Part shown: positions 36,530 through 50,668 of the stretch, piece after piece
Layout of the letters: the number at the start of each line of letters is the position of its first letter
Position numbering within the stretch: position 1 is the stretch's first letter
DNA from: Brevundimonas sp.
GTDB lineage: Bacteria > Pseudomonadota > Alphaproteobacteria > Caulobacterales > Caulobacteraceae
Assembly (NCBI RefSeq): GCF_013912065.1
Contig: NZ_JACESA010000005.1
Span: 62,001 to 126,000 of the forward strand
Direction: 5' to 3'
Length of the DNA stretch: 64,000 nucleotides
The notes under the pieces: generated by a model
Databases searched by the model: none
The model's input: the letters and a program-made list of their open reading frames with translations, nothing else
Told to the model about the DNA's origin: nothing
Translations under genes and position numbers: made by a program

Positions 36530-36613
36530 GCGCGAACGATACGCTCCGGGACGTGGCAGGGGGATAGGGCGCCGACGCCTTCAATACTCACAACGACGGT
36601 TGCGCCAGACACC

Positions 36614-37117
36614 TCAGTCATCTCGTGAAATCTTCAGCTGACGGAGGGCTTCGGCAATATGTTTCTCGACCATGCTGACGGACACGCCCAACCGCGTCGC
36701 AATCTGGCGATAGGTCATCTCTTCGAACCGGTGAAGCAGGAAGGCGTCACGCGTGGATCTGGGCAGAGCGCGGATGACGGCGGCGGCGGCGGCCAGGTTT
36801 TCTCGCCCGATCAGATGCTGGTCAGCGGCGGGCGTATCGCTGGCGACCGCGCGCGGTCCGGCGTCCAGGGTATGGATGTCGTCGGTGCCGCGCACGCCCT
36901 TGCGGCCAGCGGATTTCCACCGGTCCATCTGCAGGTTGCGGGCGATCACGAACAGCAGGGGGCGCGCGTCGGCGCCGGACATGTCGTGGCCGGCGCGATG
37001 AAAGCGAACGAAGGCCTCCTGCACCACATCCTCGGCGTCATCGGGCGACAGGCCCCTACGCTGGAGATAACCCATCAGGTCGCGGCGCAGTTCGGTGAAA
37101 TGACGATCAAGCGCCAT
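36614..37117 (-). CDS. FecI-like ECF sigma factor
   Basis: A 167-residue ECF sigma factor. Region 2: YLQRRGLSPDDAEDVVQEAFVRFHRA, then LLFVIARNLQMDRWKSA. Region 4: LPRSTRDAFLLHRFEEMTYRQIATRLGVSVSMVEKHIAEALRQLK. GGAGGAGGGGACG precedes the ATG at 37117; the 13 codons upstream are rejected. It should direct transcription of the receptor and enzyme genes downstream when released by FecR. No -35/-10 match could be verified by eye. Confidence 0.93.
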   Translation of the reverse strand: MALDRHFTELRRDLMGYLQRRGLSPDDAEDVVQEAFVRFHRAGHDMSGADARPLLFVIARNLQMDRWKSAGRKGVRGTDDIHTLDAGPRAVASDTPAADQHLIGRENLAAAAAVIRALPRSTRDAFLLHRFEEMTYRQIATRLGVSVSMVEKHIAEALRQLKISRDD

Positions 37118-37156
37118 CGTCCCCTCCTCCCGATCTGACGCGAGCCATGAACGCAC

Positions 37157-37186
37157 GAAAACGTCCCCTCCTCGCGGAGGGGACGT
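37157..37186 (-). terminator. Intrinsic terminator after the second TBDR
   Basis: ACGTCCCCTCC / GGAGGGGACGT with a four-base loop followed on the minus strand by TTTTCGTG. It separates the TBDR at 37262-40033 from the sigma-factor gene, so they are separate transcripts. Confidence 0.8.
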
Positions 37187-37261
37187 CGCGCCAGGCCGAC
37201 CTCTGGGGGATCAAGAGGCCGACCTGGTGTCTATCGAATGAGGTTCAATCCGAGAAATGGA

Positions 37262-40033
37262 TCAGAACTCCATCCGCAGGCCGAAGTTGATGCGGCGACC
37301 CGACAGCTCGTACATGGTCGGGAAGGACGGATCCATCGTATAGCCCTTGGTGGCTTCGTCGGTGACGTTGATGCCTTCCAGGTTGATCTGGAGGCTGTCG
37401 GTCACATTGTAGCTGGCCGACAGGTCGAGCTGACCATAGCCCTCACGCCAGATCGGGTACATCTCGTAACCGATCCCTTCGACATACTTGTCCTTGTAGT
37501 TGTAGGAGGCGCGCGCCTGGAACTTGGCGTTCTCGTAGAACAGGGTGACGTTGTAGGTGTTGTCGGCCAGACCGACCGGCGGGGTCGGGATGCCTAGGGT
37601 GGACGAGCCGGAGAGCGAGCTGTCCAGCACCGTGTAGTTGGCGTTGATCCCGAAGCCTTCCAGCGGGGCGTAGAACTGTCCGAACGGCACCATGGCGACC
37701 AGTTCGACACCGCTGACGTCATAGGAGCCCGGCTCGTTGATCGGCTGATAGACGTCGAACTCATAGACGCCGTCGATCGTGCCGTTGGCGTTGTACTTGG
37801 TGACGTTCGGCACCGTGCCCGTCAGGGCCTGACGCACGACGCCTTCGATTTCCTTCCAGAAGTAGGAGACCGCCAGCAGACCGCCGTCGCCCAGATACTG
37901 TTCCAGACCGACTTCCCACTGCTTGGCGTAGGTCGGCTTCAGGTTCGGGTTGCCGTCCGTGAAGCGGAACGAGTTGAAGCTGGCCGTGCGCTTGTAGGCC
38001 AGGTCGGTCAGAGCCGGACGGATCAGGGTCTCCGACGCCGCGGCGCGGAAGATCAGGCTGTCCGTCAGATCCGCCGTGATGTTGATGCTCGGCAGGACCT
38101 TGTCATAGCTGCCGTCGCTCGACACCGGATCGGGCGTATAGCCGGTCGAGCCGTTCGGGTTCTGGATCTGGTGATAGCCCGAGGAGGTGATCGAGGTGTC
38201 GATATACCGGGCGCCGCCGTTGACCGCGACCGGAACCGGACCCAGGTCGAAGTTCAGATCGGCCATGGCGTAGAGCGCCAGAACCTCTTCCGTCACTTCG
38301 TAGTAGTCGCCCACGTTGAACGGGGTGAAGAAGCCGTCATAACGGAAGGTGCGACGGGCGTATTCATTGGAGACCTGGTTCCAGGTCAGGTCGCGGACGT
38401 TGAAGTCGCCGCCGGGGACCAGGTCGCCGATCGGCGTCAGCTCGCTGTCCGCCAGCGTGCGGGTGTTGAGCCAGGCGGTGCTGCCCGCCGAGGGTCCCTG
38501 GATGTTTAGCGAGCCGTACTGACGCTGCTTGGACTTGTCCGTATAGCGGGCGCCGACCTGAACGCTGGTCAGGGCCGGGAAGAAGTCCAGATCCAGGTAT
38601 TTGGTGAAGTCGACCTGGGCGGCGTACTTGTCGTCGTCGATGGCCTCGTAGTTGGTCTCATAGGCTTCGAACAGATAGCGTTCCGGCGAGTTGTACATGT
38701 CGAAACCGGCGGACGAGGCGCTCGGGATCGTCTCGCCGCCCTCGGCCGTCCACCGCGTCCGCGACGGCGCATAGGCGACGTGCTTCAGGTTGGCGTTGTC
38801 CAGGGTCTTCTCGGCGCCGGAGTAGCCGGCGATGGCGTGCAGCTTCCAGCTGTCGCCGCTCCAGTTCAGCTCGGTCCCGAACTGCTTGTAGTCAGTCTCG
38901 TTGATCCGCTCCTTGCTGAGGAACTCGTGCTGGGTCGCGGTGTAGGAGACGTCGCGCAGCACGACCATGCCATAGTCGGCTAGGGTGGTGTCGTCGTACT
39001 CGTGGATCGTCTCCAGGGTCGAGCGGCTGGAGGCCGAATAGGCCGCCGCGTCGTACTCGTCCTCGGTCGTGTCATAGCTGCCGACCATGGCGTCGAAGGC
39101 CAGGCTGAAGTTCGACGACGGACGATACTGCAGCGAGACCGTGCCGCCCCACTGATCCTGGGTGTTCAGATAGGCGCGGTCGCCGACCTTGTCCTGGAAG
39201 ATGATACGGTTGGTCTCGTTCGTGTCGGCGCGATTCTTGACAATGACGCCGGCGTCGCGGGCCAGAACGGCCGCGGCCTGGACGCCACGAGCGCCCGTGG
39301 AGGTCGCCAGGAAGCGGGACATCGGGCGGAAGTTGATGCCGGATTCCGAGTCGGTGCGGTTGGTGCGACGAGCGGTCGAGAAGGACACCAGCGCGCCGAA
39401 GTCGCCCCAGGTGTCGCTGGCCAGGAAGGCGATCTTCGGATCGACTTCTTCGGAGATCGAGTTGTAGGCGCCTTCGACCGAACCGACCACCCGTCGTCCG
39501 GCGTAGTCGAACGGACGGGCCGTCGAAATATTGACCGAGCCGGCGATGCCGCCCTCTTCGTCCGAGGCGCGCGGCGACTTCTGGACGGTGACCTGCTGGA
39601 TGATTTCCGAGGCGAAGATGTCGAACTCGACGTCACGGCCGCCGCTGCCCGAAGCCGTCGCCAAGCCGTTGATGCTGACGAAGGTGAACTCGCTGGGCAG
39701 GCCGCGCACGTTGACGCGCTGGCCCAGGCCCTTGTTGCGTTCGATGGTCACGCCGGGGATGCGCTGCAGCGCCTCGGCCAGGTTCTGTTCCGGGAAGTTG
39801 GCGACGTCGGTCGCGACGATCGAGTCGGAGAAGCCGACGGTCTTGCGCTTGATGTCCACCGCCTCTTCAAGGCTGCGGCGGTACGAGCCGGTGACGACGA
39901 TTTCGTCGACGACGGCCGCTTCGGCGCCGGTCTGCGCGGTCATGACGACTTGGTCGGCCGATTGCGCCAGGGCGGCGAACGGCGATGCAGCCACGACGGC
40001 GAAGGCCGTGGTGCCAAGGATTCGGTTCTTCAT
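37262..40033 (-). CDS. TonB-dependent receptor (no STN domain)
   Basis: A 923-residue outer-membrane receptor. Signal peptide MKNRILGTTAFAVVAASPFAALAQ, TonB box-like DEIVVTGSYRRSLEEAV, plug with NFPEQNLAEALQRIPGVTIERNKGLGQRVNVRGLPSEFTFVSINGL, then a 22-strand-type barrel, C-terminal ELSGRRINFGLRMEF ending in Phe as required for insertion. This subtype (TIGR01782-like, long extracellular loops) is abundant in Caulobacterales and often imports carbohydrate-type substrates. It lacks an STN domain, so is not a transducer. Its own terminators flank it on both sides of the gene's 3' end. Confidence 0.92.
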   Translation of the reverse strand: MKNRILGTTAFAVVAASPFAALAQSADQVVMTAQTGAEAAVVDEIVVTGSYRRSLEEAVDIKRKTVGFSDSIVATDVANFPEQNLAEALQRIPGVTIERNKGLGQRVNVRGLPSEFTFVSINGLATASGSGGRDVEFDIFASEIIQQVTVQKSPRASDEEGGIAGSVNISTARPFDYAGRRVVGSVEGAYNSISEEVDPKIAFLASDTWGDFGALVSFSTARRTNRTDSESGINFRPMSRFLATSTGARGVQAAAVLARDAGVIVKNRADTNETNRIIFQDKVGDRAYLNTQDQWGGTVSLQYRPSSNFSLAFDAMVGSYDTTEDEYDAAAYSASSRSTLETIHEYDDTTLADYGMVVLRDVSYTATQHEFLSKERINETDYKQFGTELNWSGDSWKLHAIAGYSGAEKTLDNANLKHVAYAPSRTRWTAEGGETIPSASSAGFDMYNSPERYLFEAYETNYEAIDDDKYAAQVDFTKYLDLDFFPALTSVQVGARYTDKSKQRQYGSLNIQGPSAGSTAWLNTRTLADSELTPIGDLVPGGDFNVRDLTWNQVSNEYARRTFRYDGFFTPFNVGDYYEVTEEVLALYAMADLNFDLGPVPVAVNGGARYIDTSITSSGYHQIQNPNGSTGYTPDPVSSDGSYDKVLPSINITADLTDSLIFRAAASETLIRPALTDLAYKRTASFNSFRFTDGNPNLKPTYAKQWEVGLEQYLGDGGLLAVSYFWKEIEGVVRQALTGTVPNVTKYNANGTIDGVYEFDVYQPINEPGSYDVSGVELVAMVPFGQFYAPLEGFGINANYTVLDSSLSGSSTLGIPTPPVGLADNTYNVTLFYENAKFQARASYNYKDKYVEGIGYEMYPIWREGYGQLDLSASYNVTDSLQINLEGINVTDEATKGYTMDPSFPTMYELSGRRINFGLRMEF

Positions 40034-40213: not shown

Positions 40214-40831
40214 CTATCCGCCGTAGCTGCGCCCGCCGCCGCCGAAGCCGCCGCGTGACACGACGGTGGTGCGGCTCTGGACCCGCGTGGGCGCCTGGCG
40301 GGCCACGTCGCCGTGCTCGCGGGCGTTGGTGACGGTCCGGCCGCTGCGATAGTCGCGATAGGTGTAACCGCCGCCATAGCCGTTCGAATATCGGTTCTCA
40401 CGGTCGCGATACAGCGGCCCGCCCCCGCGATAGCCGCCGCCGTTCAACAGCTGTCCGACCACGAACCCGGCCAGAAGCGGCGAGAAGAACGAGCCCCCGC
40501 CCCCGTTGTTCGGCTGACATTGGGACGGCCCCCACTGGCCCTCGCATTCCTCGCGGGTGGCGTAACGCGGCGCGGTCTTGGCCGCCTCCTCCCGGGCCTT
40601 GGCCAGGGCGGCGTCGCATTCGTTGTCGGGTATGTCGTCGGCGGCCCGGCATTCGTCCAGCGAGGCATAGGCCAGCGTCGGCTCCGGCGGCGGCGCCGGA
40701 ACCTGTTGGGGCGAGCCGCAGGCGGCCAGAGAGAAGCTGGCGGTCGCCATCAGGCTGCTGACATGCAGTACGCGCGACCGCTTCAGCCGCCGCATGGTGT
40801 CGGTTTTGGGCAGGTCCTTGGGATCGGTCAT
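40214..40831 (-). CDS. DUF1190 family lipoprotein-like protein (YjfM type)
   Basis: A 205-residue protein from MTDPKDLPKTDTMRRLKRSR. A signal-like segment SLMATASFSLAAC-GSPQ ends in a lipobox-like Cys. The conserved DUF1190 part has repeated Cys-containing motifs (SLDECRAADDIPDNECDAALAKAREEA, YATREECEGQWGPSQCQ) and a Gly/Arg/Tyr-rich tail (YRGGGPLYRDRENRYSNGYGGGYTY). It corresponds to E. coli YjfM, partner of YjfL. The start lies five bases after the DUF350 gene ends. A longer reading upstream lies in DUF350 and is a shadow. Confidence 0.88.
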   Translation of the reverse strand: MTDPKDLPKTDTMRRLKRSRVLHVSSLMATASFSLAACGSPQQVPAPPPEPTLAYASLDECRAADDIPDNECDAALAKAREEAAKTAPRYATREECEGQWGPSQCQPNNGGGGSFFSPLLAGFVVGQLLNGGGYRGGGPLYRDRENRYSNGYGGGYTYRDYRSGRTVTNAREHGDVARQAPTRVQSRTTVVSRGGFGGGGRSYGG

Positions 40832-40836
40832 GGCGG

Positions 40837-41250
40837 TCACGACGTCATGCAGGCGGCGTTGAGCAGCCCGACGCAGATGGAGATGGAGGCCAGATAAACG
40901 GCGGCGGCGATCTCGCCCGCCTCGATCCGGACGACCAGATTGCGGAAGGCCAGGCGGCTGATGGCCACGAAGACCACGATCTGGATCACGCCGGCCAGGA
41001 GGGCCCAGGCCGCGAACTCCATCAGGCTGACCGTGTGCGACAGGGCCGAGGCCAGAGGCAGGACATAGCCGATAAGCGCGCCGCCCAGCGCGATGGCGGC
41101 GGCCGTATTGCCTTGGCGGATCAGCGTACGCTCGTGATACGGCGTGACCCACTGGTAGACCAACTTGAACGCCAGGGTGAAGGCGCCGGCGACCGCGAAG
41201 GCGATCAGGAAGGCGACCGCCCCCTGCTGAAAAATGAACCAGTCGAACAT
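40837..41250 (-). CDS. DUF350 membrane protein (YjfL type)
   Basis: A 137-residue inner-membrane protein with four hydrophobic segments in two similar halves: VAFLIAFAVAGAFTLAFKLVYQWVTPYHE, AIALGGALIGYVLPLASALSH, AAWALLAGVIQIVVFVAISRLAFR, IAAAVYLASISICVGLLNAACM. This matches DUF350/YjfL, a family often adjacent to PspA-like and glutathionylspermidine-synthase-like genes. TLIRQGNTAAAIALGG is the most characteristic stretch. In operon with DUF2491 (24 bases upstream) and DUF1190 downstream. Confidence 0.92.
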   Translation of the reverse strand: MFDWFIFQQGAVAFLIAFAVAGAFTLAFKLVYQWVTPYHERTLIRQGNTAAAIALGGALIGYVLPLASALSHTVSLMEFAAWALLAGVIQIVVFVAISRLAFRNLVVRIEAGEIAAAVYLASISICVGLLNAACMTS

Positions 41251-41274
41251 CGTCTTATCCTTCTTGGATCGCGC

Positions 41275-41922
41275 TCAGGCGCGGAACTCGGCCATTTCCA
41301 GTGGAATGCCGATCATGATTTCGTGGGTGGTTTCGCCGCCCTCGGGCTGCTGTTCCAGGGCGATCATCAGTTCGCGTCCTCCCGCCAGATCGCGGGCGTA
41401 CAACATGCAGGTCTGGAAGATTTTCGCATAGGGCGTCGTCGCGGCTCGGTCGTCCCAGATTGTCTCCCACAGGGTCACGGGCGGCTGGACGGCGTCGCTC
41501 TCGGCGAACCAGAAACGGGGATAATCCGGCAATTCTTCGGCCGCCCCATGAAAGACCGGCGCCGACAAACGGTCGCGCCACACGCGCCGCTCGCGCTCGC
41601 CGGGCGGATAGGCCGAGGTCCAGGGGATGAACAGGCTGAAGTCATAGCTTTCCAACCCGGCCTCGTCGTCGCTCATGGCCTGAAGCATGACGTGGTCGTC
41701 GGTATAGAAGCGGTGCACATACTGGCCGCCGTCCAGGCTGACCAACCCCTGGGCCGAGATGTCCAGCACGTCGCGATCCAGGGCGAAATGAGTCTCGTCC
41801 CCCAGCCGGCGCCAGGCCAGCGGGTCCAGCGAGACGGTCCGACCCACCGTGATGTTACGCACCGTCGCCAGCCGCGCTGTCGGCTCGGTCTTTTCCGACG
41901 ATCCGAAGAGTTTCTTGAACAT
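41275..41922 (-). CDS. DUF2491 family protein (YjfK type)
   Basis: A 215-residue soluble protein beginning MFKKLFGSSEKTEPTARLAT. DUF2491 features include TVSLDPLAWRRLGDETHFALDRDVLDISAQGLVSLDGGQYVHRFYTDDHVMLQAM and C-terminal TCMLYARDLAGGRELMIALEQQPEGGETTHEIMIGIPLEMAEFR. It is the counterpart of E. coli YjfK. Function unknown. It begins six bases after the potassium-channel gene ends, so the two are cotranscribed. Confidence 0.9.
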   Translation of the reverse strand: MFKKLFGSSEKTEPTARLATVRNITVGRTVSLDPLAWRRLGDETHFALDRDVLDISAQGLVSLDGGQYVHRFYTDDHVMLQAMSDDEAGLESYDFSLFIPWTSAYPPGERERRVWRDRLSAPVFHGAAEELPDYPRFWFAESDAVQPPVTLWETIWDDRAATTPYAKIFQTCMLYARDLAGGRELMIALEQQPEGGETTHEIMIGIPLEMAEFRA

Positions 41923-41927
41923 CGATC

Positions 41928-42971
41928 CTAGCTTCCGGCCAGACTGGCCTGCGCCAGTCGAACGGCCGACACATAGAACAGGCGGTCGCCCGGCTCCACG
42001 CCCGTTTCAGGCGGCGGATTGAAATGCGGCGCCTCGGCCCCCTGCGGCTGGTGCGCCAGCAGGGTCGCGCGATGGTGGAGAAGACGCTGAGCCAAGTCGC
42101 CGAATGACCGCGCCGCGCCCTGCCAGGTCAGGCTGAACAGGGTGGCGCTCACGTCCAGTTGGCTGGTCAGGGCGCTGATGACCTGGCTGGAGCCCGGATC
42201 GCGGGCGGAACGCGCCAGCATCTCAGGCCCTGAAGACAGGACGATCTCGACCTGCGGGCAGTGCTGGGCCAGAAGGCGGGCGCTGTCGGCGTCGTCGAAG
42301 AAACAGACCACATGGGCCGTCTTCGGCGCGGCGGCCGAGGCCGCAAGCGTGGCCGTCAGCGTGTCGGCGTCGCTGTCGGCATAGACCAGAATGCGACTGG
42401 CGGTCGCCGCGCCCGCGCGCGCCAGAGCATCGGCTGAGGTCAGACTTTCGCTGTGCACATAGCGAACCCGCGAATCCAGATCATTGACCACGTGGCGCGT
42501 CACCAGGACCAGGGTCTGCGCCGTGTTCAACTCCGCGCACAATTCGCTGATCATCTTCGGCGTGCGGGTCGGGTGATAGCCGATCATAATGATCGTGTCG
42601 GTCATCTTGGAATAGTCTCCCTTGCCTGCACGCCTCAGACGCCAGATGTCGCCGATGGCGCCCAGCACCTTGGCCACCACCGTCGTGAAGGCCGCTATGG
42701 CGCCGGGGAAAATCCAGATGGCGGTGATCAGGCGCCCGGCGACGTCTTGCGGACTGAGGTCGCCATAACCGACCGTATAGGCCGTTGTGGCGTACCAGTA
42801 GATGAAGGTGACCGGCGAATGCAGCTCGGTTTCGCCGGCCAGGGCCAGCAATAGCCAGGACGAAACCGCGTGAAGCAGGATCAGTCCACCCAGCATCCGC
42901 CAGTGCGTGTCGGCCATGGCTTGGAACGCCCGGTCGAAAATCAGCGCCAGTTTCATCCTAGGCAGCAACAT
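41928..42971 (-). CDS. Potassium channel with TrkA-N-like domain
   Basis: A 347-residue channel. Two membrane helices (about 25-48 and 82-105) flank a pore loop with the K+ selectivity filter TVGYGD at residues 66-71. The cytoplasmic part (about 120-340) has an RCK/TrkA-N-like fold (TDTIIMIGYHP, TLVLVTRHV, VRYVHSESLTSADALARAGAATASRILVYADSDADTL), but the usual GxGxxG nucleotide loop is replaced by GYHPTR, so nucleotide binding may be altered or lost. First gene of the leftward half of the Yjf module; divergent from the DUF2170 gene. Confidence 0.9.
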   Translation of the reverse strand: MLLPRMKLALIFDRAFQAMADTHWRMLGGLILLHAVSSWLLLALAGETELHSPVTFIYWYATTAYTVGYGDLSPQDVAGRLITAIWIFPGAIAAFTTVVAKVLGAIGDIWRLRRAGKGDYSKMTDTIIMIGYHPTRTPKMISELCAELNTAQTLVLVTRHVVNDLDSRVRYVHSESLTSADALARAGAATASRILVYADSDADTLTATLAASAAAPKTAHVVCFFDDADSARLLAQHCPQVEIVLSSGPEMLARSARDPGSSQVISALTSQLDVSATLFSLTWQGAARSFGDLAQRLLHHRATLLAHQPQGAEAPHFNPPPETGVEPGDRLFYVSAVRLAQASLAGS

Positions 42972-43025
42972 GCCATTCCCTTCGTCTCAACCAACTGACC
43001 GCAAACCCCTAGGCGAAGTCAAGCG

Positions 43026-43047
43026 TTCATGTTACGCGTTACATGAA
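43026..43047. promoter_or_regulatory. 22-bp near-palindrome at the divergent Yjf promoter
   Basis: Arms TTCATGT (43026-43032) and ACATGAA (43041-43047) around TACGCGTT; only the two bases flanking ACGCGT break perfect symmetry. It lies two bases before the ATG of the RHH/DUF2170 gene and about 55 bases before the channel gene. It is a likely operator for both directions. Confidence 0.65.
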
Positions 43048-43049
43048 AC

Positions 43050-43730
43050 ATGACCACGACCGCTCCGCCCTCCTCCGCCGCCAATGATCGCATTCGTGCG
43101 TGGCGGCAGGCGCGTCGCGAGGCCGGGCTGGTCAAGCTGGAGCTCTGGGTGCCTGAATCCGCCCGCGACGATGTGAAGGCCGCCGTTCGCGCCATTCTCA
43201 CAGACTCAACGCGTGGCCCCCAGCTTGCCGGCCGCGCGCGCCGCCCCACTTCTCATTCCATCCCCTCTGGAGACGACCACCATATGGACGCCGTGATCGA
43301 AACCCCCTGGACCGTGCCGGCCATCAAGACCGCGCTGGAACAGTCCCCCCTGCTGCGCGACGGGGAAATGAGCCTGCGCGTCGTGGAGGGGGCGGACCCC
43401 GTGCTGCTGGCCACGATGCACGAATACGGCGACCTGCCGATCTATCTCAGCGTCGGCGGCGCCCAGATCGTCTGTTCGGTCCTGTTGTGGCCGGTCGCCG
43501 AACAGGCCGACCGTCACGCCTTCAACGAGTTCTTGCTCAAGGCCCAGCGCGTGGTGCCGCTGTCCGCCTTCGCCATCACCAATGTGGGCGGCGAAGACGT
43601 GTATGAGTTGATGGGCGAACTGTCGTGCAAGACGACATTGCAGACCATCCTCATCGAACTGCGCACCCTGGCCGAGAATGCGATCGACGCCACCGAACTG
43701 CGTGAAACCTTCGGCGCCGACGCCGCCTGA
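43050..43730 (+). CDS. Ribbon-helix-helix-like/DUF2170 fusion (YjfI type)
   Basis: A 226-residue protein. The N-terminal ~55 residues (NDRIRAWRQARREAGLVKLELWVPESARDDVKAAVRAIL) have the strand-helix-helix pattern of a ribbon-helix-helix DNA-binding domain. After a basic linker, DUF2170 starts at about residue 79 (MDAVIETPWTVPAIKTALEQSPLL.. VPLSAFAITNVGGEDVYELMGELS). As I recall, E. coli YjfI consists of the second part only. An internal ATG at 43284 preceded by GGAGACGACC could also give the short form. The palindrome two bases upstream suggests autoregulation. Confidence 0.85.
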   Translation: MTTTAPPSSAANDRIRAWRQARREAGLVKLELWVPESARDDVKAAVRAILTDSTRGPQLAGRARRPTSHSIPSGDDHHMDAVIETPWTVPAIKTALEQSPLLRDGEMSLRVVEGADPVLLATMHEYGDLPIYLSVGGAQIVCSVLLWPVAEQADRHAFNEFLLKAQRVVPLSAFAITNVGGEDVYELMGELSCKTTLQTILIELRTLAENAIDATELRETFGADAA

Positions 43731-43745
43731 TCCGGAGACCCGACC

Positions 43746-44486
43746 ATGTCCATGCTCAGAAAACTCTCCGCACTGTTCCGCGGCTCCGCCCATGACGCCG
43801 CCCAGGGCGTCGTTGACGCCAATGCGCTGAAGATTCTCGACCAGGAAATCCGCGACGCCGACAACGCCCAGGGCAAGGCGCGCGACGACCTCGCCGGCCT
43901 GGTGGCGCGCCGCCGCATGGCGGAAAACGAAATGGCCAGCTTCCGCGACCAGATCGCCAAATACGAAAGCTCGGCCCGCACCGCCCTGGGCCAGGGCAAG
44001 ACCGACCTGGCGCGCGAGGTCGCCTCGCGCATCGCCGAGCTGGAGGTCGAGATCACCAGCCGCGGCCCGCTGATCGAAGACATGAAGACGGCCGAAACCC
44101 GGCTGCGCACCGCCATCGCCTCGACCGACCAGAAGATCGAGACGCTTCGTCGCGAGATCGACATCGTCAAGGTCAACGACTCCGTCCAGCGCGCCCAGAC
44201 CTCGGTCGCCCTGAACTCGGCCGGCGCCCAGTCGCGCATCGGCTCGGCCGCCGACAGCCTGCAACGCATCAAGCAGCGCCAGGCCATTCAGGAAGAGAAG
44301 CTAAACGCCAGCCAGGCCCTGGAAGACCGCCGCACCGGCGCCGACCTGGACGCCAAGCTGCGCGACGCCGGCATCCTGCCCGGCCATTCCTCGGCCGACG
44401 ACGTCCTGGCCCGCCTCAGCCAGCCCGACGTGACCGTGGTCACGCCGCGCATCGGCCAGTCCACGCCCGACAAGGACCCGGCCTGA
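43746..44486 (+). CDS. PspA/IM30 family protein (YjfJ type)
   Basis: A 246-residue ESCRT-III-like membrane-remodelling protein. It is almost all coiled coil: MSMLRKLSALFRGSAHDAAQ, then VDANALKILDQEIRDADNAQGKARDDLAGLVARRRMAENEMASF, and TRLRTAIASTDQKIETLRREIDIVKVNDSVQRAQ. Pfam PspA/IM30 pattern; about the family length. It is E. coli YjfJ's counterpart, distinct from the phage-shock PspA regulated by PspF. The gene lies 15 bases after DUF2170 and 4 bases before the ATP-grasp gene. Confidence 0.92.
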   Translation: MSMLRKLSALFRGSAHDAAQGVVDANALKILDQEIRDADNAQGKARDDLAGLVARRRMAENEMASFRDQIAKYESSARTALGQGKTDLAREVASRIAELEVEITSRGPLIEDMKTAETRLRTAIASTDQKIETLRREIDIVKVNDSVQRAQTSVALNSAGAQSRIGSAADSLQRIKQRQAIQEEKLNASQALEDRRTGADLDAKLRDAGILPGHSSADDVLARLSQPDVTVVTPRIGQSTPDKDPA

Positions 44487-44489
44487 CCC

Positions 44490-45656
44490 ATGGAGCGTCT
44501 GCGCCTCGAACCCCGAACCGACTGGGACGCCAAGGCCGAGGAACTCGGCTTCACCTGGCGCCACACCGACGGCAAACCCTATTGGGACGAGACGGCGGCC
44601 TACGCCTTCTCGCTGGCCGAGATCGAGGACGGGATCGAGGCGCCGACCGCCGAACTGCACGGCCTGTGCCTGGATCTGGTCAACGACGCCGTTCAGTCCG
44701 AGCGGCTGATGGAGCAGCTCGATATTCCAGAAACCATGCGGGACTATGTGGCCGACAGCTGGAAGCGGGGCGACCCGTCCCTCTATGGCCGGTTCGACTT
44801 CGCCTATGACGGCGCTGGCCCGGCCAAGCTCTACGAATACAACGCCGACACCCCGACCAGCATCTATGAGACGGCGGTGTTCCAGTGGCTGTGGCTGGAG
44901 GACCAGATCGCCGCCGGCGTCCTGCCCGCCGACGCCGACCAGTTCAACAGCCTGCACGAGAAGCTGGTCGACCGGTTCCGCGCCATCTTCCCCGACGGCG
45001 GCTTCATCCATTTCGCCTCGGACGCCGACTTCGTCGAGGACCGCCAGACGGTGCGCTTCCTCGAGGACCTGGCCCGTCAGGCCGGTCTGGACCCCCAGTT
45101 CGTCGCCATCGACCAGATCGGCCTGAACGAAGAGGGCCGGTTTGTCGATCACGAGAACTGGATCATCCAAGCCCTGTTCAAGCTCTACCCCTGGGAACAG
45201 ATGCTGCGCGATGAATACGCCACGCCCCTGCCCACGGCCGACGTCCGCGTCCTTGAGCCGGCCTGGAAGAGCATCCTGTCCAACAAGGCCATCCTGCCCC
45301 TGCTGTGGGAACGCCACAAAGGCCACCCCAATCTGCTGGAAGCCTATTTCGAGGGCGATCCCGCCGAAGCCGCCCTGGGGGCCTCCTATGTGCGCAAGCC
45401 GCTGTTCTCGCGCGAAGGCGACAATGTCGAACTGATCGACCAGGGCCACAGCGCGGCCGACGTCGTCGACGGCGGCTATGGCGAGGGGCGCTACATCCGC
45501 CAGGCCCTTTGCAATCCGCCCCTCTTCGACGGCAACCACGTCATCGTCGGCTCCTGGGTCGTCGGCGAGGAACCGGCGGGCATCAGCCTGCGCGAGGACC
45601 CGGGCCGGATCACCCGCAACACTTCGCGCTTCGTGCCCCACTTCATCCGCGACTGA
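44490..45656 (+). CDS. Glutathionylspermidine synthase-like ATP-grasp ligase (YjfC type)
   Basis: A 388-residue protein of the glutathionylspermidine-synthase C-terminal (GSP_synth) family. Motifs: RFDFAYDGAGPAKLYEYNADTPTSIYETAVFQWLW, ALFKLYPWEQMLRDEYATPLPTADVRVLEPAWKSILSNKAILPLLWE, and the ATP-binding ASYVRKPLFSREGDNVELID. It lacks the amidase domain of E. coli Gss and corresponds to YjfC. The likely chemistry is an amide bond between a carboxylate and an amine (spermidine-like), but the real substrate is unknown. Last gene of the rightward operon; convergent with the acyl-CoA dehydrogenase. Confidence 0.93.
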   Translation: MERLRLEPRTDWDAKAEELGFTWRHTDGKPYWDETAAYAFSLAEIEDGIEAPTAELHGLCLDLVNDAVQSERLMEQLDIPETMRDYVADSWKRGDPSLYGRFDFAYDGAGPAKLYEYNADTPTSIYETAVFQWLWLEDQIAAGVLPADADQFNSLHEKLVDRFRAIFPDGGFIHFASDADFVEDRQTVRFLEDLARQAGLDPQFVAIDQIGLNEEGRFVDHENWIIQALFKLYPWEQMLRDEYATPLPTADVRVLEPAWKSILSNKAILPLLWERHKGHPNLLEAYFEGDPAEAALGASYVRKPLFSREGDNVELIDQGHSAADVVDGGYGEGRYIRQALCNPPLFDGNHVIVGSWVVGEEPAGISLREDPGRITRNTSRFVPHFIRD

Positions 45657-45676: not shown

Positions 45677-47476
45677 TCAGAACCAGGCGTCACGCATTTC
45701 CAGGGTCGTGTCGTCGCGACGGATCAGCAGGTCGAGCTGAGGCTCGACCTTGGGCAATTCCCAGTGGAAGAAGTACCGCGCGGCCTGACGCTTGCCGTCG
45801 TAGAAGTCGCCGGTCTTGCCAGCCGCCGCCAGCGCCTGTTCCAGCCAGATCCAGGCCAGGACCGCATGGCCGACGACCTCCAGATAGGCCGAGGCGTTGG
45901 CCAAGGCCCGTTCGGGATCGCCGTCGCTCCAGACCGCGGCTGTCGCCTCGCCGATCCGGGCCATGGTCCGCATCAGGGCCTCGCCATACGGCTGCAGTTC
46001 CGGATGATCTGCGGTCCGGGCCACCGTCGCCAGAACCGTCTCGCCCAGCAGTTTCAGCCCCGACCCGCCGTCCATGATCGCCTTGCGGCCCAGCAGGTCC
46101 ATCCCCTGGATCCCGTGCGTCCCTTCGTGGATCGGGTTCAACCGGTTGTCGCGATAGAACTGCTCGACCGGATAGTCGCGGGTATAGCCGTATCCGCCCA
46201 GCACCTGGATCGCCAGGCTGTTGCCCTCCAGGCACCATTGTGACGGCCAGCTCTTGGCGATCGGCGTCAGCATGTCCAGCAGCCGCCGCGCCCGGTCCCG
46301 CTCGGTCGCCGCCTCGGCCGTGGCTTCATCGTCGGTCAGGCGCGCGCAGTACAGGTTCAGCGCCAGCGCTCCCTCGGCATAGGCCTTCTGCGCCAGCAGC
46401 ATCCGCCGAACATCGGCGTGCTCGATGATCGGCACGGGCGGACTGGCGGGATCCTTTGCCGAGACCGGCCGGCCCTGCGGCCGTCCACGCGCATAGTCCA
46501 GGGCGTGCAGATAGCCGGTATAGCCCAGGGCCGCCGCCCCCGCCCCGACCCCGATCCGCGCCTCGTTCATCATGTGGAACATGGCGGCCAGCCCCTGGTT
46601 CGGCACCCCGACCAGTTCGCCGACGGCGCCCGCCTCGCCCCCCGGCCGGTGCTTGCCCTCGCCGAAATTCAGCAGGGTGTTGGTCGTGCCGCGATAGCCC
46701 ATCTTGTGGTTCAGCCCCGCCAGGACGACGTCGTTGCGCTCGCCCGGCGCACCGCTCTCGTCCAGCCTGTGTTTGGGAACCACGAACAGAGAAATCCCCT
46801 TCACCCCCGCCGGCGCCCCCTCTATCCGGGCCAGCACCATATGGACGATGGTCTCTGACAGGTCGTGATCCCCGCCCGAAATCCACATCTTCGAGCCGAA
46901 CAGCCGATAGGTTCCGTCGGCCTGCGGAACCGCGCGGGTGCGTATATCCCCCAGCGACGAGCCCGCCTGGGGCTCGGACAGGCACATGGTGCCGAAGAAC
47001 CGCCCCTCCAGCATGGGCCGCACATAGGCGTCGATCTGCGCGGCCGTGCCGTGGGTCTTCAGCAGATTGGCCGCGCCTATGGTCAGGAACGGATAGGCGG
47101 CGCTGCCGACATTGGCGGCCTGGAACCAGGCGAAGCCCGCGCGCTCGATCACATTGGGCAGTTGCAGCCCGCCCAGATCATAATCCTGCGACGCCGAGAA
47201 CAGTCCGGCCTCGCGAAAAGCGGCCACAGCCTGCGCCACCTCGGGGATCATCGTCACCCGTTCGCCGTCAAAGGTCGGCTCGTTCTGGTCGGCCTTGCGA
47301 TTGTGCGGGGCGAAATGGTCGGCCGCGATCTGGGCGCAGGTGTCCAGAACCCCGTCGAACGACACCCGATCATGATCCGCGAACCGCGCCCGCTGCGTCA
47401 GCCGCTCGACCCCCAGCCATTCGTACAGGATGAAATCCAGGTCGCGCCGTGACAGGATCAGCGAGGCGTCAGACAT
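45677..47476 (-). CDS. Acyl-CoA dehydrogenase, DmdC/long-subfamily type
   Basis: A 599-residue FAD acyl-CoA dehydrogenase, longer than classic 380-residue enzymes because of a C-terminal extension (about 470-599, ACAD_C). Signatures: FGTMCLSEPQAGSSLGDIRTRA, YRLFGSKMWISGGDHDLSETIVHMVLAR and VLGGYGYTRDYPVEQFYRDNRLNPIHEGTHGIQGMDLLGRK; the Glu in NPIHEGTHGIQ is in the position of the catalytic base of this subfamily. Members act on 3-methylmercaptopropionyl-CoA (DmdC) or on other acyl-CoAs; the substrate cannot be told here. No neighbouring fatty-acid genes. Confidence 0.92.
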   Translation of the reverse strand: MSDASLILSRRDLDFILYEWLGVERLTQRARFADHDRVSFDGVLDTCAQIAADHFAPHNRKADQNEPTFDGERVTMIPEVAQAVAAFREAGLFSASQDYDLGGLQLPNVIERAGFAWFQAANVGSAAYPFLTIGAANLLKTHGTAAQIDAYVRPMLEGRFFGTMCLSEPQAGSSLGDIRTRAVPQADGTYRLFGSKMWISGGDHDLSETIVHMVLARIEGAPAGVKGISLFVVPKHRLDESGAPGERNDVVLAGLNHKMGYRGTTNTLLNFGEGKHRPGGEAGAVGELVGVPNQGLAAMFHMMNEARIGVGAGAAALGYTGYLHALDYARGRPQGRPVSAKDPASPPVPIIEHADVRRMLLAQKAYAEGALALNLYCARLTDDEATAEAATERDRARRLLDMLTPIAKSWPSQWCLEGNSLAIQVLGGYGYTRDYPVEQFYRDNRLNPIHEGTHGIQGMDLLGRKAIMDGGSGLKLLGETVLATVARTADHPELQPYGEALMRTMARIGEATAAVWSDGDPERALANASAYLEVVGHAVLAWIWLEQALAAAGKTGDFYDGKRQAARYFFHWELPKVEPQLDLLIRRDDTTLEMRDAWF

Positions 47477-47784: not shown

Positions 47785-48732
47785 CTAGCCGAGGTCGTCC
47801 GCCACCAGATGCTGAAGCACGCGCTTTTCCAGCACCAGCAGGGCGCCGGCCCGGTTGGTGCGCATGACCAGGCCTTCGGCCAGCGGCCGCGCCGCCTGAT
47901 GCACGGCCCCGGCCAGGCGCTGGAAGTCCGCCTTTCCTTCTCCGGCGATCCCATGCAGGCCGCACAGCTGACGCCAGTCCTGGACGAAGCCTTGCAGCAT
48001 CAGATCGAACCGGGCGGCCCGGGATCGCACTTCGGGAGTATCGGCGGCCAGGGTGATTTCGGCGCGCAGATCGTCGATCAGAAGCTGCACCTCCGCCGCT
48101 GGCATGACGGACGAGCGCTGATCGTGCTCGGTCAAGAGTTGAGACCGGGCCGAAGGCTCCCAGCCCACGGTCCGCCATTGCTCGCGCGGCGGCGTCGGCC
48201 CGCAGGCGAACTGCCAGAAGGCCGCCGTGCCCGTGGTGTCGGCGACCAGATGGACCCGCTCCGCCTCGGACCCGTTTTCCACATGGTGGCGGCGCCAGTT
48301 GTCGAAGATCCAGGCTTCGCCGGCGCCCATGTGCACGACCTCGCCGTCGCAGTGGAACCGCACCTCCGGCCGGGTGAAGACCGGAATGTGCAGCCGCACC
48401 CGCGTATGCCAGTGATAATTGATGTCGGCGTGTTCGGGCACGACGGCGCCGGGGGCCAGACGCATCAGGCGCGACCGGCTCCACACCACCCCGAACCCGG
48501 CCAGCACCTGGCGCAGATAGGGCGCCTCGTTCAGCCAGCGGGTCGGCAGCATCTGGCCATGAACCGCATCCGTCTCGCAGCCCCCGGCGCTGATCAGCCG
48601 CGAGGCGCTGTTGCCGGGCGCCCGATCGGGATGCGGCCCCCAGGCCTCGACCGGCAGGGCCGCGACCTCGGTCTGCAGCCGTTCGACATCGAACAGGACA
48701 GGAAGCTGGAAGAAGGGTCGAGAGAGGCGCAT
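47785..48732 (-). CDS. Aspartyl/asparaginyl beta-hydroxylase-like protein (2OG-Fe)
   Basis: A 315-residue protein. The central domain fits the Asp/Asn hydroxylase cupin fold: RLMRLAPGAVVPEHADINYHWHTRVRLHIPVFTRPEVRFHCDGEVVHMGAGEAWIFDNWRRHHVENGSEAERVHLVADT. His in PEHADINYHW, His in RRHHVENG and Arg in AERVHLV would provide iron and 2-oxoglutarate ligands. A helical C-terminal 110 residues is extra. The start is four bases after the TPR-sulfotransferase stop. It may hydroxylate a peptide or an amino acid of a surface molecule. Confidence 0.85.
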   Translation of the reverse strand: MRLSRPFFQLPVLFDVERLQTEVAALPVEAWGPHPDRAPGNSASRLISAGGCETDAVHGQMLPTRWLNEAPYLRQVLAGFGVVWSRSRLMRLAPGAVVPEHADINYHWHTRVRLHIPVFTRPEVRFHCDGEVVHMGAGEAWIFDNWRRHHVENGSEAERVHLVADTTGTAAFWQFACGPTPPREQWRTVGWEPSARSQLLTEHDQRSSVMPAAEVQLLIDDLRAEITLAADTPEVRSRAARFDLMLQGFVQDWRQLCGLHGIAGEGKADFQRLAGAVHQAARPLAEGLVMRTNRAGALLVLEKRVLQHLVADDLG

Positions 48733-48736
48733 CGGG

Positions 48737-50668
48737 TCAGTCCCTGTAGCCGGTCAGCGCATCGCCCAGCGCCGCTTTCAAAGGCCCGAGCCAGGGCTCG
48801 TACCGCCGCCATTGATCCAGTCCGTCGCGGCCGATCGGCCGGCGCACCTGTTCCGAACTGGGGGTTCGCACGCTGCGCCGGGTCTGATGGAAATCGAGAC
48901 AAGCCGGTTCGAAGGCCAGGCCGCAGTGCGCCAACATGCGCCGCACCTGCCCGTCCAGATCTTCGACCACGTCCTCGTACTGCACCCTCAACACCCGCCC
49001 CGGCAGCACCATATCCCAGTGCCGCATCATCCCCAGATAGGCGCGGTAGTAGCGGGCCATGTGGTCGACGTCATAGACGAACTCCTGATTGGTCGTCCCG
49101 AACAACTGCTTCAGATTGCTGAAGCAACAGGCGACGGGCTCGCGTTTCACATCGATGATCCGCGCCTTCGGCAGGATCAGATGAATCAGGCCGATGTGCC
49201 AGAAATTGTTCGGCATCTTGTCGATGAAGAAGGGCCGACCGTCGCGGCGATAGATGCGGGTCTCGGCCAGAAAACGCTCGCCCACGGCGCGGACCTCCGC
49301 CGCCGACAGCCGATGGGCCGCCTCGGGCTGAACAGGCAGGCCGCACGCCGGATCGCGCCCGAACAGTTCGCCGGCGTAACGGCCGATCTCGGTCAGCTCC
49401 TGCGTCCCCTCCACCTGGGAATGCGAGGCCAGGATTTGTTCGATCAGGGTCGAACCCGAACGCGGCAGCCCCAGGACGAAGATCGGATCGGCCTCCGCCA
49501 AGCCCCATCCCTCGCGCGCGGCGAAGAAGTCGGCGGTGAAGGCCTGGACGGTCGCCAGGGCGCAGGCCTCCGCCGCCTCGGGACTGTGCCGACTGGCCCG
49601 ACGCCGCACCCCGTTGCCCTGCTCGTACCAGCGCCAGGAGGCCTCGTATTCGGCGCGGTCCTCCATCGCCTTGCCCAGGGCGAAGGCCAGATAGACCCGG
49701 TCCATCTCCTGCAGATCCGGCCTTGCCGCCGCGGCCTTCATCCGCCCGATGTCGTCGTCGGTGAAACCATGGGTCTTCAGATTGGCCAGGCTGAACCAGG
49801 CCACGCCATAGTCGGGCCGGGCGGCCAGGGCGGCGCGATAATCGGCCACCGCCTCCTCGGTCCGCCCCGTGATCTTCAGGGCGTTGGCGCGCCACAGCCG
49901 CAGTTCGGCGACCTCAGTCGCCGACGACGTCGGGCCGTCCAGCAAGCGCTGATACAGGTCGATCACCGGCTCATGGTCGCCCAGGGCGACACAGGCCGCG
50001 CCATAGAGTTTAAGATCGTCGCGATTGACCGGCGCATGGGCCAGCAGCCGTTCGGCCTGCTCCCGCGCCTGCCGGGGCTTCTGCCGCTGCAGCAAGACCA
50101 TGGCGTAGTCCCGGCGGGCGGCGTGATAGTCGGGGGAGCGATCCAGCACGCCTTCCAGCAGGGTCTCAGCCTCGTCCAGCGCGCCGGCCGCCATGCGGAT
50201 ACGGGCCAGCAGACGCAGGGCGCCCGTATTGTCTTCGTGCCGCTGCAGGAAGTCGCGGATCACCGCCTCGGCCGGCGCCAGATCGCCGTCGGCGAACAGA
50301 CTGTCGGCCATCACCACCTCAGGAGGCAGCGACCGCAGCGTGGCCAGCCTCTGGGCCGCCAGCCCCGCCCGGTCGCCGTCGCCCCCCATCCGGTACAGCT
50401 GCTCCAGCATGTCCCAACTGGCGGGCAGGCTCGGGTTCAACCGAACGGCCTCATGCAGGGCCTCGACCGCAGCGGGCGCGTTCCCGAGCAGAACCTGGCA
50501 ATGGCCGCGCTCCTGATGAAGCCGGCTGAAGCGCGGATGCTCGGCCTGCACGCGCGCCAGAACCGCCAGGGCCGCCGGAACACGTCCCGCCGCCCGGTGC
50601 GCCCTCGCCTCCTGCATCAGGCGGTCGCGCTCGGTCGAGACGGCGTCGATCCCGGCCGGCGCGTTCAT
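48737..50668 (-). CDS. TPR-domain sulfotransferase
   Basis: A 643-residue protein from MNAPAGIDAVSTERDRLMQE. The first ~350 residues are tetratricopeptide repeats (AGRVPAALAVLARVQAEHPRFSRLHQERGH, EAVRLNPSLPASWDMLEQL, SPDYHAARRDYAMVLLQR). The C-terminal half is a sulfotransferase domain with the PAPS 5'-phosphosulfate loop FVLGLPRSGSTLIEQILASH, a DKMPNNFWHIG motif, and RIIDVKREPVACCFSNLKQLF for the 3'-phosphate. TPR-sulfotransferases resemble protein-tyrosine sulfotransferases. Overlaps the upstream hydroxylase-like gene by four bases; I reject the longer reading into that gene. Confidence 0.9.
   Translation of the reverse strand: MNAPAGIDAVSTERDRLMQEARAHRAAGRVPAALAVLARVQAEHPRFSRLHQERGHCQVLLGNAPAAVEALHEAVRLNPSLPASWDMLEQLYRMGGDGDRAGLAAQRLATLRSLPPEVVMADSLFADGDLAPAEAVIRDFLQRHEDNTGALRLLARIRMAAGALDEAETLLEGVLDRSPDYHAARRDYAMVLLQRQKPRQAREQAERLLAHAPVNRDDLKLYGAACVALGDHEPVIDLYQRLLDGPTSSATEVAELRLWRANALKITGRTEEAVADYRAALAARPDYGVAWFSLANLKTHGFTDDDIGRMKAAAARPDLQEMDRVYLAFALGKAMEDRAEYEASWRWYEQGNGVRRRASRHSPEAAEACALATVQAFTADFFAAREGWGLAEADPIFVLGLPRSGSTLIEQILASHSQVEGTQELTEIGRYAGELFGRDPACGLPVQPEAAHRLSAAEVRAVGERFLAETRIYRRDGRPFFIDKMPNNFWHIGLIHLILPKARIIDVKREPVACCFSNLKQLFGTTNQEFVYDVDHMARYYRAYLGMMRHWDMVLPGRVLRVQYEDVVEDLDGQVRRMLAHCGLAFEPACLDFHQTRRSVRTPSSEQVRRPIGRDGLDQWRRYEPWLGPLKAALGDALTGYRD

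What the first reader, a model, noticed from the sequence alone, without database searches (positions are those of the whole stretch)
40214..45656. Complete divergent YjfIJKLMC module with a potassium channel
All six counterparts of E. coli yjfI-J-K-L-M-C are present, split into two divergent operons, with a K+ channel added. PspA-type membrane remodelling, a GSP-synthase-like ligase, DUF350 and a channel together suggest an envelope stress or membrane-repair system coupled to K+ efflux and polyamine- or peptide-type ligation. The system as a whole has no established function that I know of.
Basis: partly seen in the sequence, partly recalled or inferred. Interest (0 to 1): 0.75.

Follow-up and report, generated by a model that had tools for sequence, protein, structure and literature searches.

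The report
Envelope module with Gly-Gly-tailed lipoprotein and ligase
The seven genes are real and belong to an already described kind of bacterial envelope gene cluster, but comparing many genomes shows that its peptide ligase usually sits near a membrane-anchored protein with a conserved, mostly Gly-Gly tail, which may be the ligase's natural target.

Summary
In detail: six YjfI/J/K/L/M/C counterparts plus a K+ channel lie at 40214-45656 as two divergent gene groups in a Brevundimonas-like genome. The set, channel included, is already in print (Ravi et al. 2024, PMC11237479; section 19 read). The channel is optional: 46 of 76 full modules, 12 gains or losses on the ligase tree. What seems new is the lipoprotein's C-terminus...SRGGFGGGGRSYGG. 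A GF[GST]-type motif, variable linker and mostly Gly-Gly end occurs in a protein encoded near 178 of 188 YgiC/YjfC-type ligases (147 end in GG), but near 0 of 13 long, GspS-type ligases (motif widened after first misses). In 30 ligase loci picked for lacking Pfam DUF1190, 22 have it adjacent with the earlier, narrower motif, against 1 of 13 GspS loci and 2 of 227 other ORF anchors. I infer that the ligase joins this C-terminal glycine to a polyamine, in a unit to which PspA-type membrane genes are added. The association is shown; the chemistry is not. The tail probably faces the periplasm, the main objection, and 31 of 178 tails do not end in GG. Two key papers could not be read, so priority is unverified.

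The parts
40214..40831 (-). DUF1190 (YjfM/YgiB-like) protein; by eye a KRS-hydrophobic start and lipobox Cys38
   Evidence: Pfam 2.4e-36; translation; alignment
40217..40255 (-). C-terminal tail RGGFGGGGRSYGG, residues 193-205: proposed acyl substrate of the ligase
40837..41250 (-). DUF350 (YjfL-like) membrane protein
   Evidence: Pfam 1.4e-36; 4TM according to PMC11237479
41275..41922 (-). DUF2491 (YjfK-like), beta-rich predicted fold
   Evidence: Pfam 7.8e-52; AlphaFold2 model pLDDT 93.1, pTM 0.87; no significant PDB fold match
41928..42971 (-). K+ channel (filter TVGYGD) with TrkA_N-like cytosolic domain; optional member
   Evidence: Pfam; MthK by phmmer 9.7e-8; alignment of 47; 46 of 76 full modules
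43026..43047 (.). Palindrome TTCATGTTACGCGTTACATGAA, candidate operator of the divergent promoter region
   Evidence: Only site in the genome within 3 mismatches; at least 16 of 18 positions kept in 10 of 11 Brevundimonas-like loci
43050..43730 (+). DUF2170 (YjfI/BacA-like; CesT/Tir-type domain according to the literature)
   Evidence: Pfam 2.8e-47; NCBIfam BacA model 152.9 bits, below its cut-off 300; PMC11237479, PMC10948618
43746..44486 (+). PspA/IM30 family protein (YjfJ-like)
   Evidence: Pfam 3.8e-47
44490..45656 (+). YjfC/YgiC-type ATP-grasp acid-amine ligase
   Evidence: Pfam 4.1e-148; PDB 7uk8 (YgiC) 6.7e-118, 7uk6 (YjfC) 1.8e-117; catalytic residues kept

Best explanation
The locus is a divergent, channel-bearing form of the known PspA / GspS-like-ligase envelope module. 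SHOWN: a YgiC/YjfC-type ligase encoded with a membrane-anchored protein (anchor judged by eye) whose C-terminus carries a GF[GST]-type motif, a variable linker and a mostly Gly-Gly end; DUF350, then DUF2170-PspA-DUF2491, then a K+ channel are added in nested fashion. INFERRED: the ligase activates the C-terminal carboxylate of that protein (as GspS activates the glycine of glutathione) and joins it to a polyamine, giving a polycationic tail on an envelope protein before or during export. The capped protein, with DUF350, would act at the membrane; the YjfI-YjfJ dyad, where present, would respond by PspA-type membrane remodelling; the channel would adjust K+. In this organism the amine is probably of the homospermidine class rather than spermidine made by SpeE.
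For: Tailed protein in the ligase neighbourhood: 78 of 78 in set 1 (76 drawn by having DUF1190, plus 2 E. coli), 76 of 80 in set 2 (drawn by the ligase), 24 of 30 in set 3 (drawn for lacking Pfam DUF1190); 64, 63 and 20 end in GG (motif widened after misses). DUF1190 genes lie at most 3.7 kb from the ligase in sets 1-2. Narrower motif, adjacent ORFs only, set 3: 22 of 30; GspS loci 1 of 13 (that ORF ends LLGTLC); other ORFs of 250 aa or more as anchors 2 of 227. Controls: GspS-type loci 0 of 13 and no GG-ending ORF within 450 bases on the same strand in any of the 13; DUF4178 loci without ligase 0 of 20 with motif and GG end; DUF1190-like loci without a ligase in the stretch 0 of 7 end in GG. 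Terminus-specific: 110 of 133 distinct DUF1190 tails end in GG against 19.9 on average when the last 12 residues are shuffled (largest of 2000: 32). In 17 YgiB-type genes the last two codons vary only among Gly codons, all four used at -2. Two-gene units keep the tail without DUF350 or PspA. Active site: R316, D318, E330, N332, E392, K498, K533, R598 of GspS kept in 24 of 24 ligases; E391, T446, Q582, D610 not (roles recalled). Precedent: SUMO ...LGG-COOH joined to spermidine in cells (PMC12270671, passages). A table in PMC12506659 says YgiC lacks the GspS activity (passage). No SpeD or SpeE in this genome, but a homospermidine-type synthase model above cut-off.
Against: The ligase needs ATP and is presumably cytosolic (no signal-peptide tool was run), while the tail follows a signal anchor or lipobox and is probably periplasmic; YgiB is listed among vesicle proteins of an E. 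coli tolA mutant (PMC7973035, passage). Capping would have to precede translocation. 31 of 178 tails do not end in GG (13 GS, 10 SS, 8 others). 10 of 188 ligase loci show no tailed protein, three of them (L135, L138, L186) at contig ends. With the strict R[GS]G[FY] form the counts fall to 65 of 78, 67 of 80 and 22 of 30. 14 of 21 non-DUF1190 tailed proteins match a loose KRS-hydrophobic start seen in DUF1190 (one of them, L224, not convincing), so they are probably remote relatives, not independent inventions. Sets 1 and 2 share some genomes (identical ligases L017/L136, L089/L188). The 31-row alignment A3 was a favourable pick: 29 of its 30 relatives end in GG against 31 of the 41 set 2 rows left out. 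No chemistry, complex structure or mass spectrum was available. Pederick 2023 and Iyer 2009 could not be read.
Confidence: 0.5

Rival explanations
1. Known-module reading only: a PspA envelope operon in which the ligase makes a small peptide-polyamine metabolite, DUF1190 is a metal-chelating or sensing lipoprotein, and its Gly-rich tail does something else.
For: Close to the printed view (PMC11237479 section 19: 'metal-chelating lipoprotein'). The ligase is related to GspS, which acts on free glutathione. The tail is probably periplasmic.
Against: Does not explain why the tail motif tracks the ligase, in two-gene units and where Pfam sees no DUF1190, yet is missing beside GspS-type genes (0 of 13).
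Confidence: 0.27
2. The tail is a docking or sorting signal: the ligase or another partner binds the GF motif and the C-terminus non-covalently, without polyamine transfer to it.
For: Motif plus free C-terminus is a common recognition format; the GF motif is at least as constant as the GG end (178 against 147 of 178), and Ser ends are tolerated.
Against: The commonest partner is an enzyme of a class that activates C-terminal carboxylates, with the recalled catalytic residues kept in 24 of 24.
Confidence: 0.15
3. The channel makes this a K+-efflux membrane-damage or anti-phage system.
For: T[VI]GYGD filter in 44 of 47 channels and gene position inside the module.
Against: Channel absent from 30 of 76 full modules, 12 changes on the tree; the nearest relative L128 (92% ligase identity) lacks it; only weak PADLOC hits, all to PspA.
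Confidence: 0.05

Closest known systems
PspA 'third group' operon of Ravi et al. 2024 (PMC11237479)
   Same: CesT/Tir-PspA dyad, GspS-like ATP-grasp ligase, K+ channel, DUF350, DUF1190, DUF2491 are all listed there
   Different: Here two divergent groups with the lipoprotein gene opposite to its ligase and a palindrome between them; the tail is not mentioned in section 19, and 'glycine' does not occur in the paper's main text
E. coli yjfIJKLMC and ygiBC
   Same: Same families; all three lipoproteins end in GG; window ligase 47% (YjfC) and 49% (YgiC) identical
   Different: No channel; six collinear genes, or a two-gene unit
E. coli YgiC/YjfC peptide--spermidine ligases (PDB 7uk8, 7uk6)
   Same: Sequence match along nearly the whole protein
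   Different: Natural acyl substrate not stated in any source I could read; this report proposes one
Bifunctional glutathionylspermidine synthetase/amidase (GspS)
   Same: GSP_synth domain and recalled catalytic residues
   Different: 620-660 aa in the 13 control loci, none with a tailed neighbour; other residues at E391, T446, Q582, D610
SUMO/ubiquitin-spermidine conjugates (PMC12270671)
   Same: C-terminal Gly-Gly carboxylate joined to spermidine
   Different: Eukaryotic, made by E1/E2 on a beta-grasp protein; here an ATP-grasp enzyme and a Gly/Ser-rich tail, conjugation not shown
P. aeruginosa bac cluster (BacA/BacB)
   Same: DUF2170 plus PspA pair
   Different: Its authors find no spermidine-synthase homologue in or around the operon (passage)

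Membership tests
PspA / GspS-like ligase operon (Ravi 2024, third group) | DUF2170-PspA dyad adjacent on one strand | tested here: met
PspA / GspS-like ligase operon (Ravi 2024, third group) | GspS-like ligase, DUF350, DUF1190, DUF2491 and K+ channel in the same neighbourhood | tested here: met
PspA / GspS-like ligase operon (Ravi 2024, third group) | Role in envelope stress or membrane dynamics | not testable with these tools
   E. coli yjfIJKL is up in heat-evolved strains (PMC12492005, passages); no test here
YgiC/YjfC peptide--spermidine ligase | Near full-length similarity to solved YgiC and YjfC | tested here: met
YgiC/YjfC peptide--spermidine ligase | ATP/Mg and carboxylate-activating residues kept | tested here: met
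   8 positions in 24 of 24 sequences, window included (roles and numbering recalled, read off a 620-aa GspS of locus L248)
YgiC/YjfC peptide--spermidine ligase | Amide bond formation between a peptide and spermidine | not testable with these tools
   needs an enzyme assay
Glutathionylspermidine synthetase (GspS) | NCBIfam equivalog score | tested here: not met
   156.2 bits against cut-off 882
Ubiquitin-like / Pup-like tagging | C-terminal Gly-Gly (or similar) encoded with a dedicated carboxylate-activating enzyme | tested here: inconclusive
   Tail association shown; that the enzyme acts on it is inferred
Ubiquitin-like / Pup-like tagging | Conjugation to protein lysines | not testable with these tools
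   the amine proposed here is a free polyamine; not filed as a member
Anti-phage defence system | Good match to a described defence family | tested here: not met
   PADLOC: 3 weak hits to the PspA protein, best E 0.0017 (LmuB); none for the other six

The most novel reading that the evidence does not exclude
YgiC/YjfC ligases are protein C-terminal polyamine ligases: their natural substrate is the mostly Gly-Gly tail of a co-encoded membrane-anchored protein (YgiB, YjfM and remote relatives), so many Pseudomonadota carry a polyamine-capping system for an envelope protein, with homospermidine-class amines used where SpeE is missing.
Probability: 0.45. Interest if true: 0.82.

Novelty: new member of a known kind. 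Interest (0 to 1): 0.6.

Why it matters
The natural peptide substrate of YgiC and YjfC is not stated in any source I could read, although the 3' ends of ygiB and yjfM with their ligase junctions match (at least 80% of each query) in 5375 and 5370 of 5426 E. coli genomes. If the conserved tail of the neighbouring lipoprotein is that substrate, targeted mass spectrometry in a laboratory strain can settle it, and bacterial envelope biology gains a protein C-terminal polyamine modification, chemically parallel to SUMO-spermidine. It also reorders the module: the tail-ligase pair is the core, and PspA, DUF2491 and the channel are additions.

Tried and rejected
Channel as the key: rejected as a defining part. 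Anti-phage defence: only weak PADLOC hits. K+ efflux coupling: no evidence for or against. Unrelated tail families: I first took the non-DUF1190 tailed proteins for independent families; 14 of 21 match a loose KRS-hydrophobic start, so I call them probable remote relatives. Universal Gly-Gly: rejected, 31 of 178 end otherwise. SpeD/SpeE spermidine as the amine here: no hit for either; other routes to spermidine were not searched. DUF2491 function: confident model but no significant fold match in the PDB (best E 0.041, TM-scores of the 50 rows shown 0.37 or less) and one chance-level sequence hit (E 0.035). DUF1190 profile against the PDB: one chance-level hit (E 0.031). The DUF1190 structure job was accepted but not finished when I stopped.

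Motif history: one search used [GS]GF[GST] with 4-45 residues to the end, written when four set 3 tails had already been printed; one search allowed 3-45; one search added RGGYG, RGGFK, RSGFF, RRGLG and more first letters after misses were seen, and demanded a G, S, T or E end for non-DUF1190 ORFs. The loose form also made chance hits: 1 of 13 GspS loci, ORFs in 8 of 20 DUF4178 loci, none ending in GG, and one of the seven DUF1190-like ORFs without ligase (L127, ends EVRID). In one search a gap bug left 18 loci without a tailed protein; correct it. One search is a partial control: 20 of the 22 matching genomes were fetched; 15 of 20 loci have a DUF350 hit and 4 a PspA hit, several weak. Of the seven DUF1190-like ORFs without ligase, several are weak and two genomes (G246, G395) have a ligase elsewhere. 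For alignment A3 I used 30 of the 55 rows listed; the choice favoured GG ends.
Full report
OBSERVATION. All seven genes are present at the stated coordinates, each with a Pfam match above its cut-off. Minus strand: DUF1190, DUF350, DUF2491, K+ channel. Plus strand: DUF2170, PspA, GspS-like ligase. The genome held has 3.54 Mb in 45 contigs. The best ligase relative found is in Brevundimonas sp. UBA6550 at 92%, so I take the source to be Brevundimonas-like (Caulobacteraceae).

ALREADY IN PRINT. Ravi et al. 2024 (PMC11237479; section 19 and passages seen) describe an operon group with the CesT/Tir-PspA dyad, a GspS-related ATP-grasp ligase, a potassium channel, DUF350, a DUF1190 lipoprotein and DUF2491. 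The gene set is therefore not new. E. coli yjfIJKL is upregulated in strains evolved to grow at 45.3 C (PMC12492005, passages). YgiC and YjfC have solved structures (7uk8, 7uk6) and are named peptide--spermidine ligases in the RefSeq K-12 record; the primary paper (Pederick 2023) I know only by its title in reference lists. A table in PMC12506659 says that YgiC lacks the GspS activity (passage).

NESTED MODULE. I gathered 188 ligase loci, window not counted. Set 1: 78 loci (76 drawn by DUF1190, plus two of E. coli; seven further DUF1190-like loci had no ligase). Set 3: 30 ligase loci, namely 27 genomes with a single-domain-sized ligase but no DUF1190 match, and 3 further loci whose genome has DUF1190 elsewhere. 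Sets 1 and 2 share some genomes. Of the 188, 76 hold all six genes (35 of 78, 41 of 80, 0 of 30); 46 of the 76 have the channel and 44 have PspA and DUF2491 on opposite strands. On a tree of these 76 ligases the channel needs 12 changes, 11 forced by well-supported branches. Smaller units are common: DUF1190 plus ligase alone (28 of 78, 21 of 80), or with DUF350 (15 of 78, 10 of 80). In Pseudomonadota 102 of 396 genomes have a GSP_synth match, GspS included, and 74 of 396 have DUF1190. Within the window's order DUF1190 was found in 11 of 100 genomes, all in the window's family.

THE TAIL. E. coli YjfM ends ...SRGGYGRSSSARGHWGG, YgiB ...TRGGFG...SSRSMGG, the window protein ...SRGGFGGGGRSYGG. 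Of 133 distinct DUF1190 tails 110 end in GG; shuffling the last 12 residues gives 19.9 on average and at most 32 in 2000 trials; Gly stands at -2 in 121 and at -1 in 112. In a 31-row alignment the only invariant columns after residue 141 are GFG (195-197) and G204, with R193 and G205 nearly invariant and a linker of variable length; that alignment favoured GG ends (29 of its 30 relatives against 31 of 41 set 2 rows left out), so the frequencies are the ones to trust. In 17 YgiB-type two-gene loci (E. coli and 16 loci of one family that I take for Enterobacteriaceae) the last two codons vary only among Gly codons, all four being used at -2. Among set 1 and window proteins with a score above 80, no other module protein ends in GG: DUF350 0 of 51, DUF2491 0 of 36, DUF2170 0 of 36, PspA 0 of 36, ligase 0 of 79, channel 0 of 25.

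THE TAIL TRACKS THE LIGASE. With the widened motif a tailed protein lies in the neighbourhood of 78 of 78, 76 of 80 and 24 of 30 ligases in sets 1-3, ending in GG in 64, 63 and 20. In sets 1 and 2 the DUF1190 gene is at most 3.7 kb away and within 450 bases in 68 of 78 and 45 of 71. Set 3 is the sharper test, because it was picked for lacking Pfam DUF1190: with the narrower motif an adjacent ORF qualifies in 22 of 30, of which 18 end in GG, against 1 of 13 GspS-type loci and 2 of 227 other ORF anchors. A stricter form, R[GS]G[FY] with a small-residue end within 4.5 kb on either strand, gives 65 of 78, 67 of 80, 22 of 30 and 0 of 13. GspS-type control loci were classed by length (620-660 aa). 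Further controls: seven DUF1190-like ORFs without a ligase in the stretch, 0 of 7 ending in GG, several weak; 20 DUF4178 loci without ligase, 0 of 20 with motif and GG end. The tail therefore goes with the ligase rather than with DUF350 or PspA. Set 3 tailed proteins that I read are mostly short, with one N-terminal hydrophobic stretch or lipobox by eye and a Ser/Gly-rich linker; of ten scanned, none reaches a Pfam cut-off. 14 of 21 non-DUF1190 tailed proteins match a loose KRS-hydrophobic start, so they are probably remote relatives of DUF1190.

MECHANISM. Eight positions that I recall as ATP/Mg-binding or catalytic in GspS are kept in 24 of 24 ligases, while E391, T446, Q582 and D610, recalled as contacts to the rest of glutathione or spermidine, are not. 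An enzyme that keeps carboxylate activation but has changed substrate contacts, encoded near a protein with a conserved C-terminal end, suggests that this end is the acyl substrate. Joining spermidine to a C-terminal Gly-Gly is chemically known: SUMO in cells and ubiquitin in vitro (PMC12270671, passages). In the window genome SpeD and SpeE gave no match, but a deoxyhypusine-synthase-like protein scores 565 against a cut-off of 500 for 1,9-bis(guanidino)-5-aza-nonane synthase, near a PLP decarboxylase of unassigned specificity, so the amine is likely of the homospermidine class. The step from association to chemistry is inference. The chief difficulty is topology: the tail follows a signal anchor and should end up outside the cytosol, so capping would have to come before translocation.

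OTHER PARTS. The channel's best solved relative by sequence is MthK; T[VI]GYGD is found in 44 of 47 channels and a GxGxx[GA] pattern in the first part of the cytosolic domain in 1 of 47, so a classical NAD site is unlikely. DUF2491 gives a confident beta-rich model (pLDDT 93.1, pTM 0.87), 14 invariant residues in 24 sequences with no Cys or His among them, which argues against a Cys-His amidase, and no significant fold match in the PDB. A palindrome, TTCATGTTACGCGTTACATGAA, lies 2 bases before the DUF2170 start; it is the only such site in the genome within three mismatches and is kept at 16 or more of 18 positions in 10 of 11 Brevundimonas-like loci (L139 has 13), but not in most other loci. 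In six of these loci the random-segment control also reached 16-18, I assume because a segment covered the site itself. I take it for an operator of both gene groups; the regulator is unknown.

NOVELTY. Module: a member of a known kind. Tail-ligase link: I found no mention in what I saw of the papers held (searches; only three held papers contain DUF1190 or UPF0441), but two key papers were not readable, so priority is not established.

Noticed in passing
window 43026-43047: 22-bp palindrome in the divergent promoter region, unique in the genome within 3 mismatches and kept in 10 of 11 Brevundimonas-like loci.
   Followed up: partly
window 45677-47476: Acyl-CoA dehydrogenase converges on the ligase gene; in E. 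coli aidB, annotated as isovaleryl-CoA dehydrogenase, directly follows yjfC. May be coincidence.
   Followed up: no
window 35522-40033: Sigma-70-family factor, FecR and a TonB-dependent receptor lie directly beside the module on the minus strand.
   Followed up: no
window 47785-50641: Aspartyl/asparaginyl beta-hydroxylase-like protein next to a TPR-sulfotransferase.
   Followed up: no
L002 1501-1881 (G000 contig C18): Second DUF350 gene of the genome, next to ORFs that look like a trypsin-type protease and QueG (by eye); no ligase seen in the 3.4 kb held.
   Followed up: no
L254 983-3689: Homospermidine-type synthase near a PLP decarboxylase in a genome without SpeD and SpeE matches.
   Followed up: partly
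L289 6998-7189: Small ORF ending SRGGYGGGGGYSGGGSGHK in a DUF350-DUF4178 locus without ligase; resembles the tail but lacks the Gly-Gly end.
   Followed up: no
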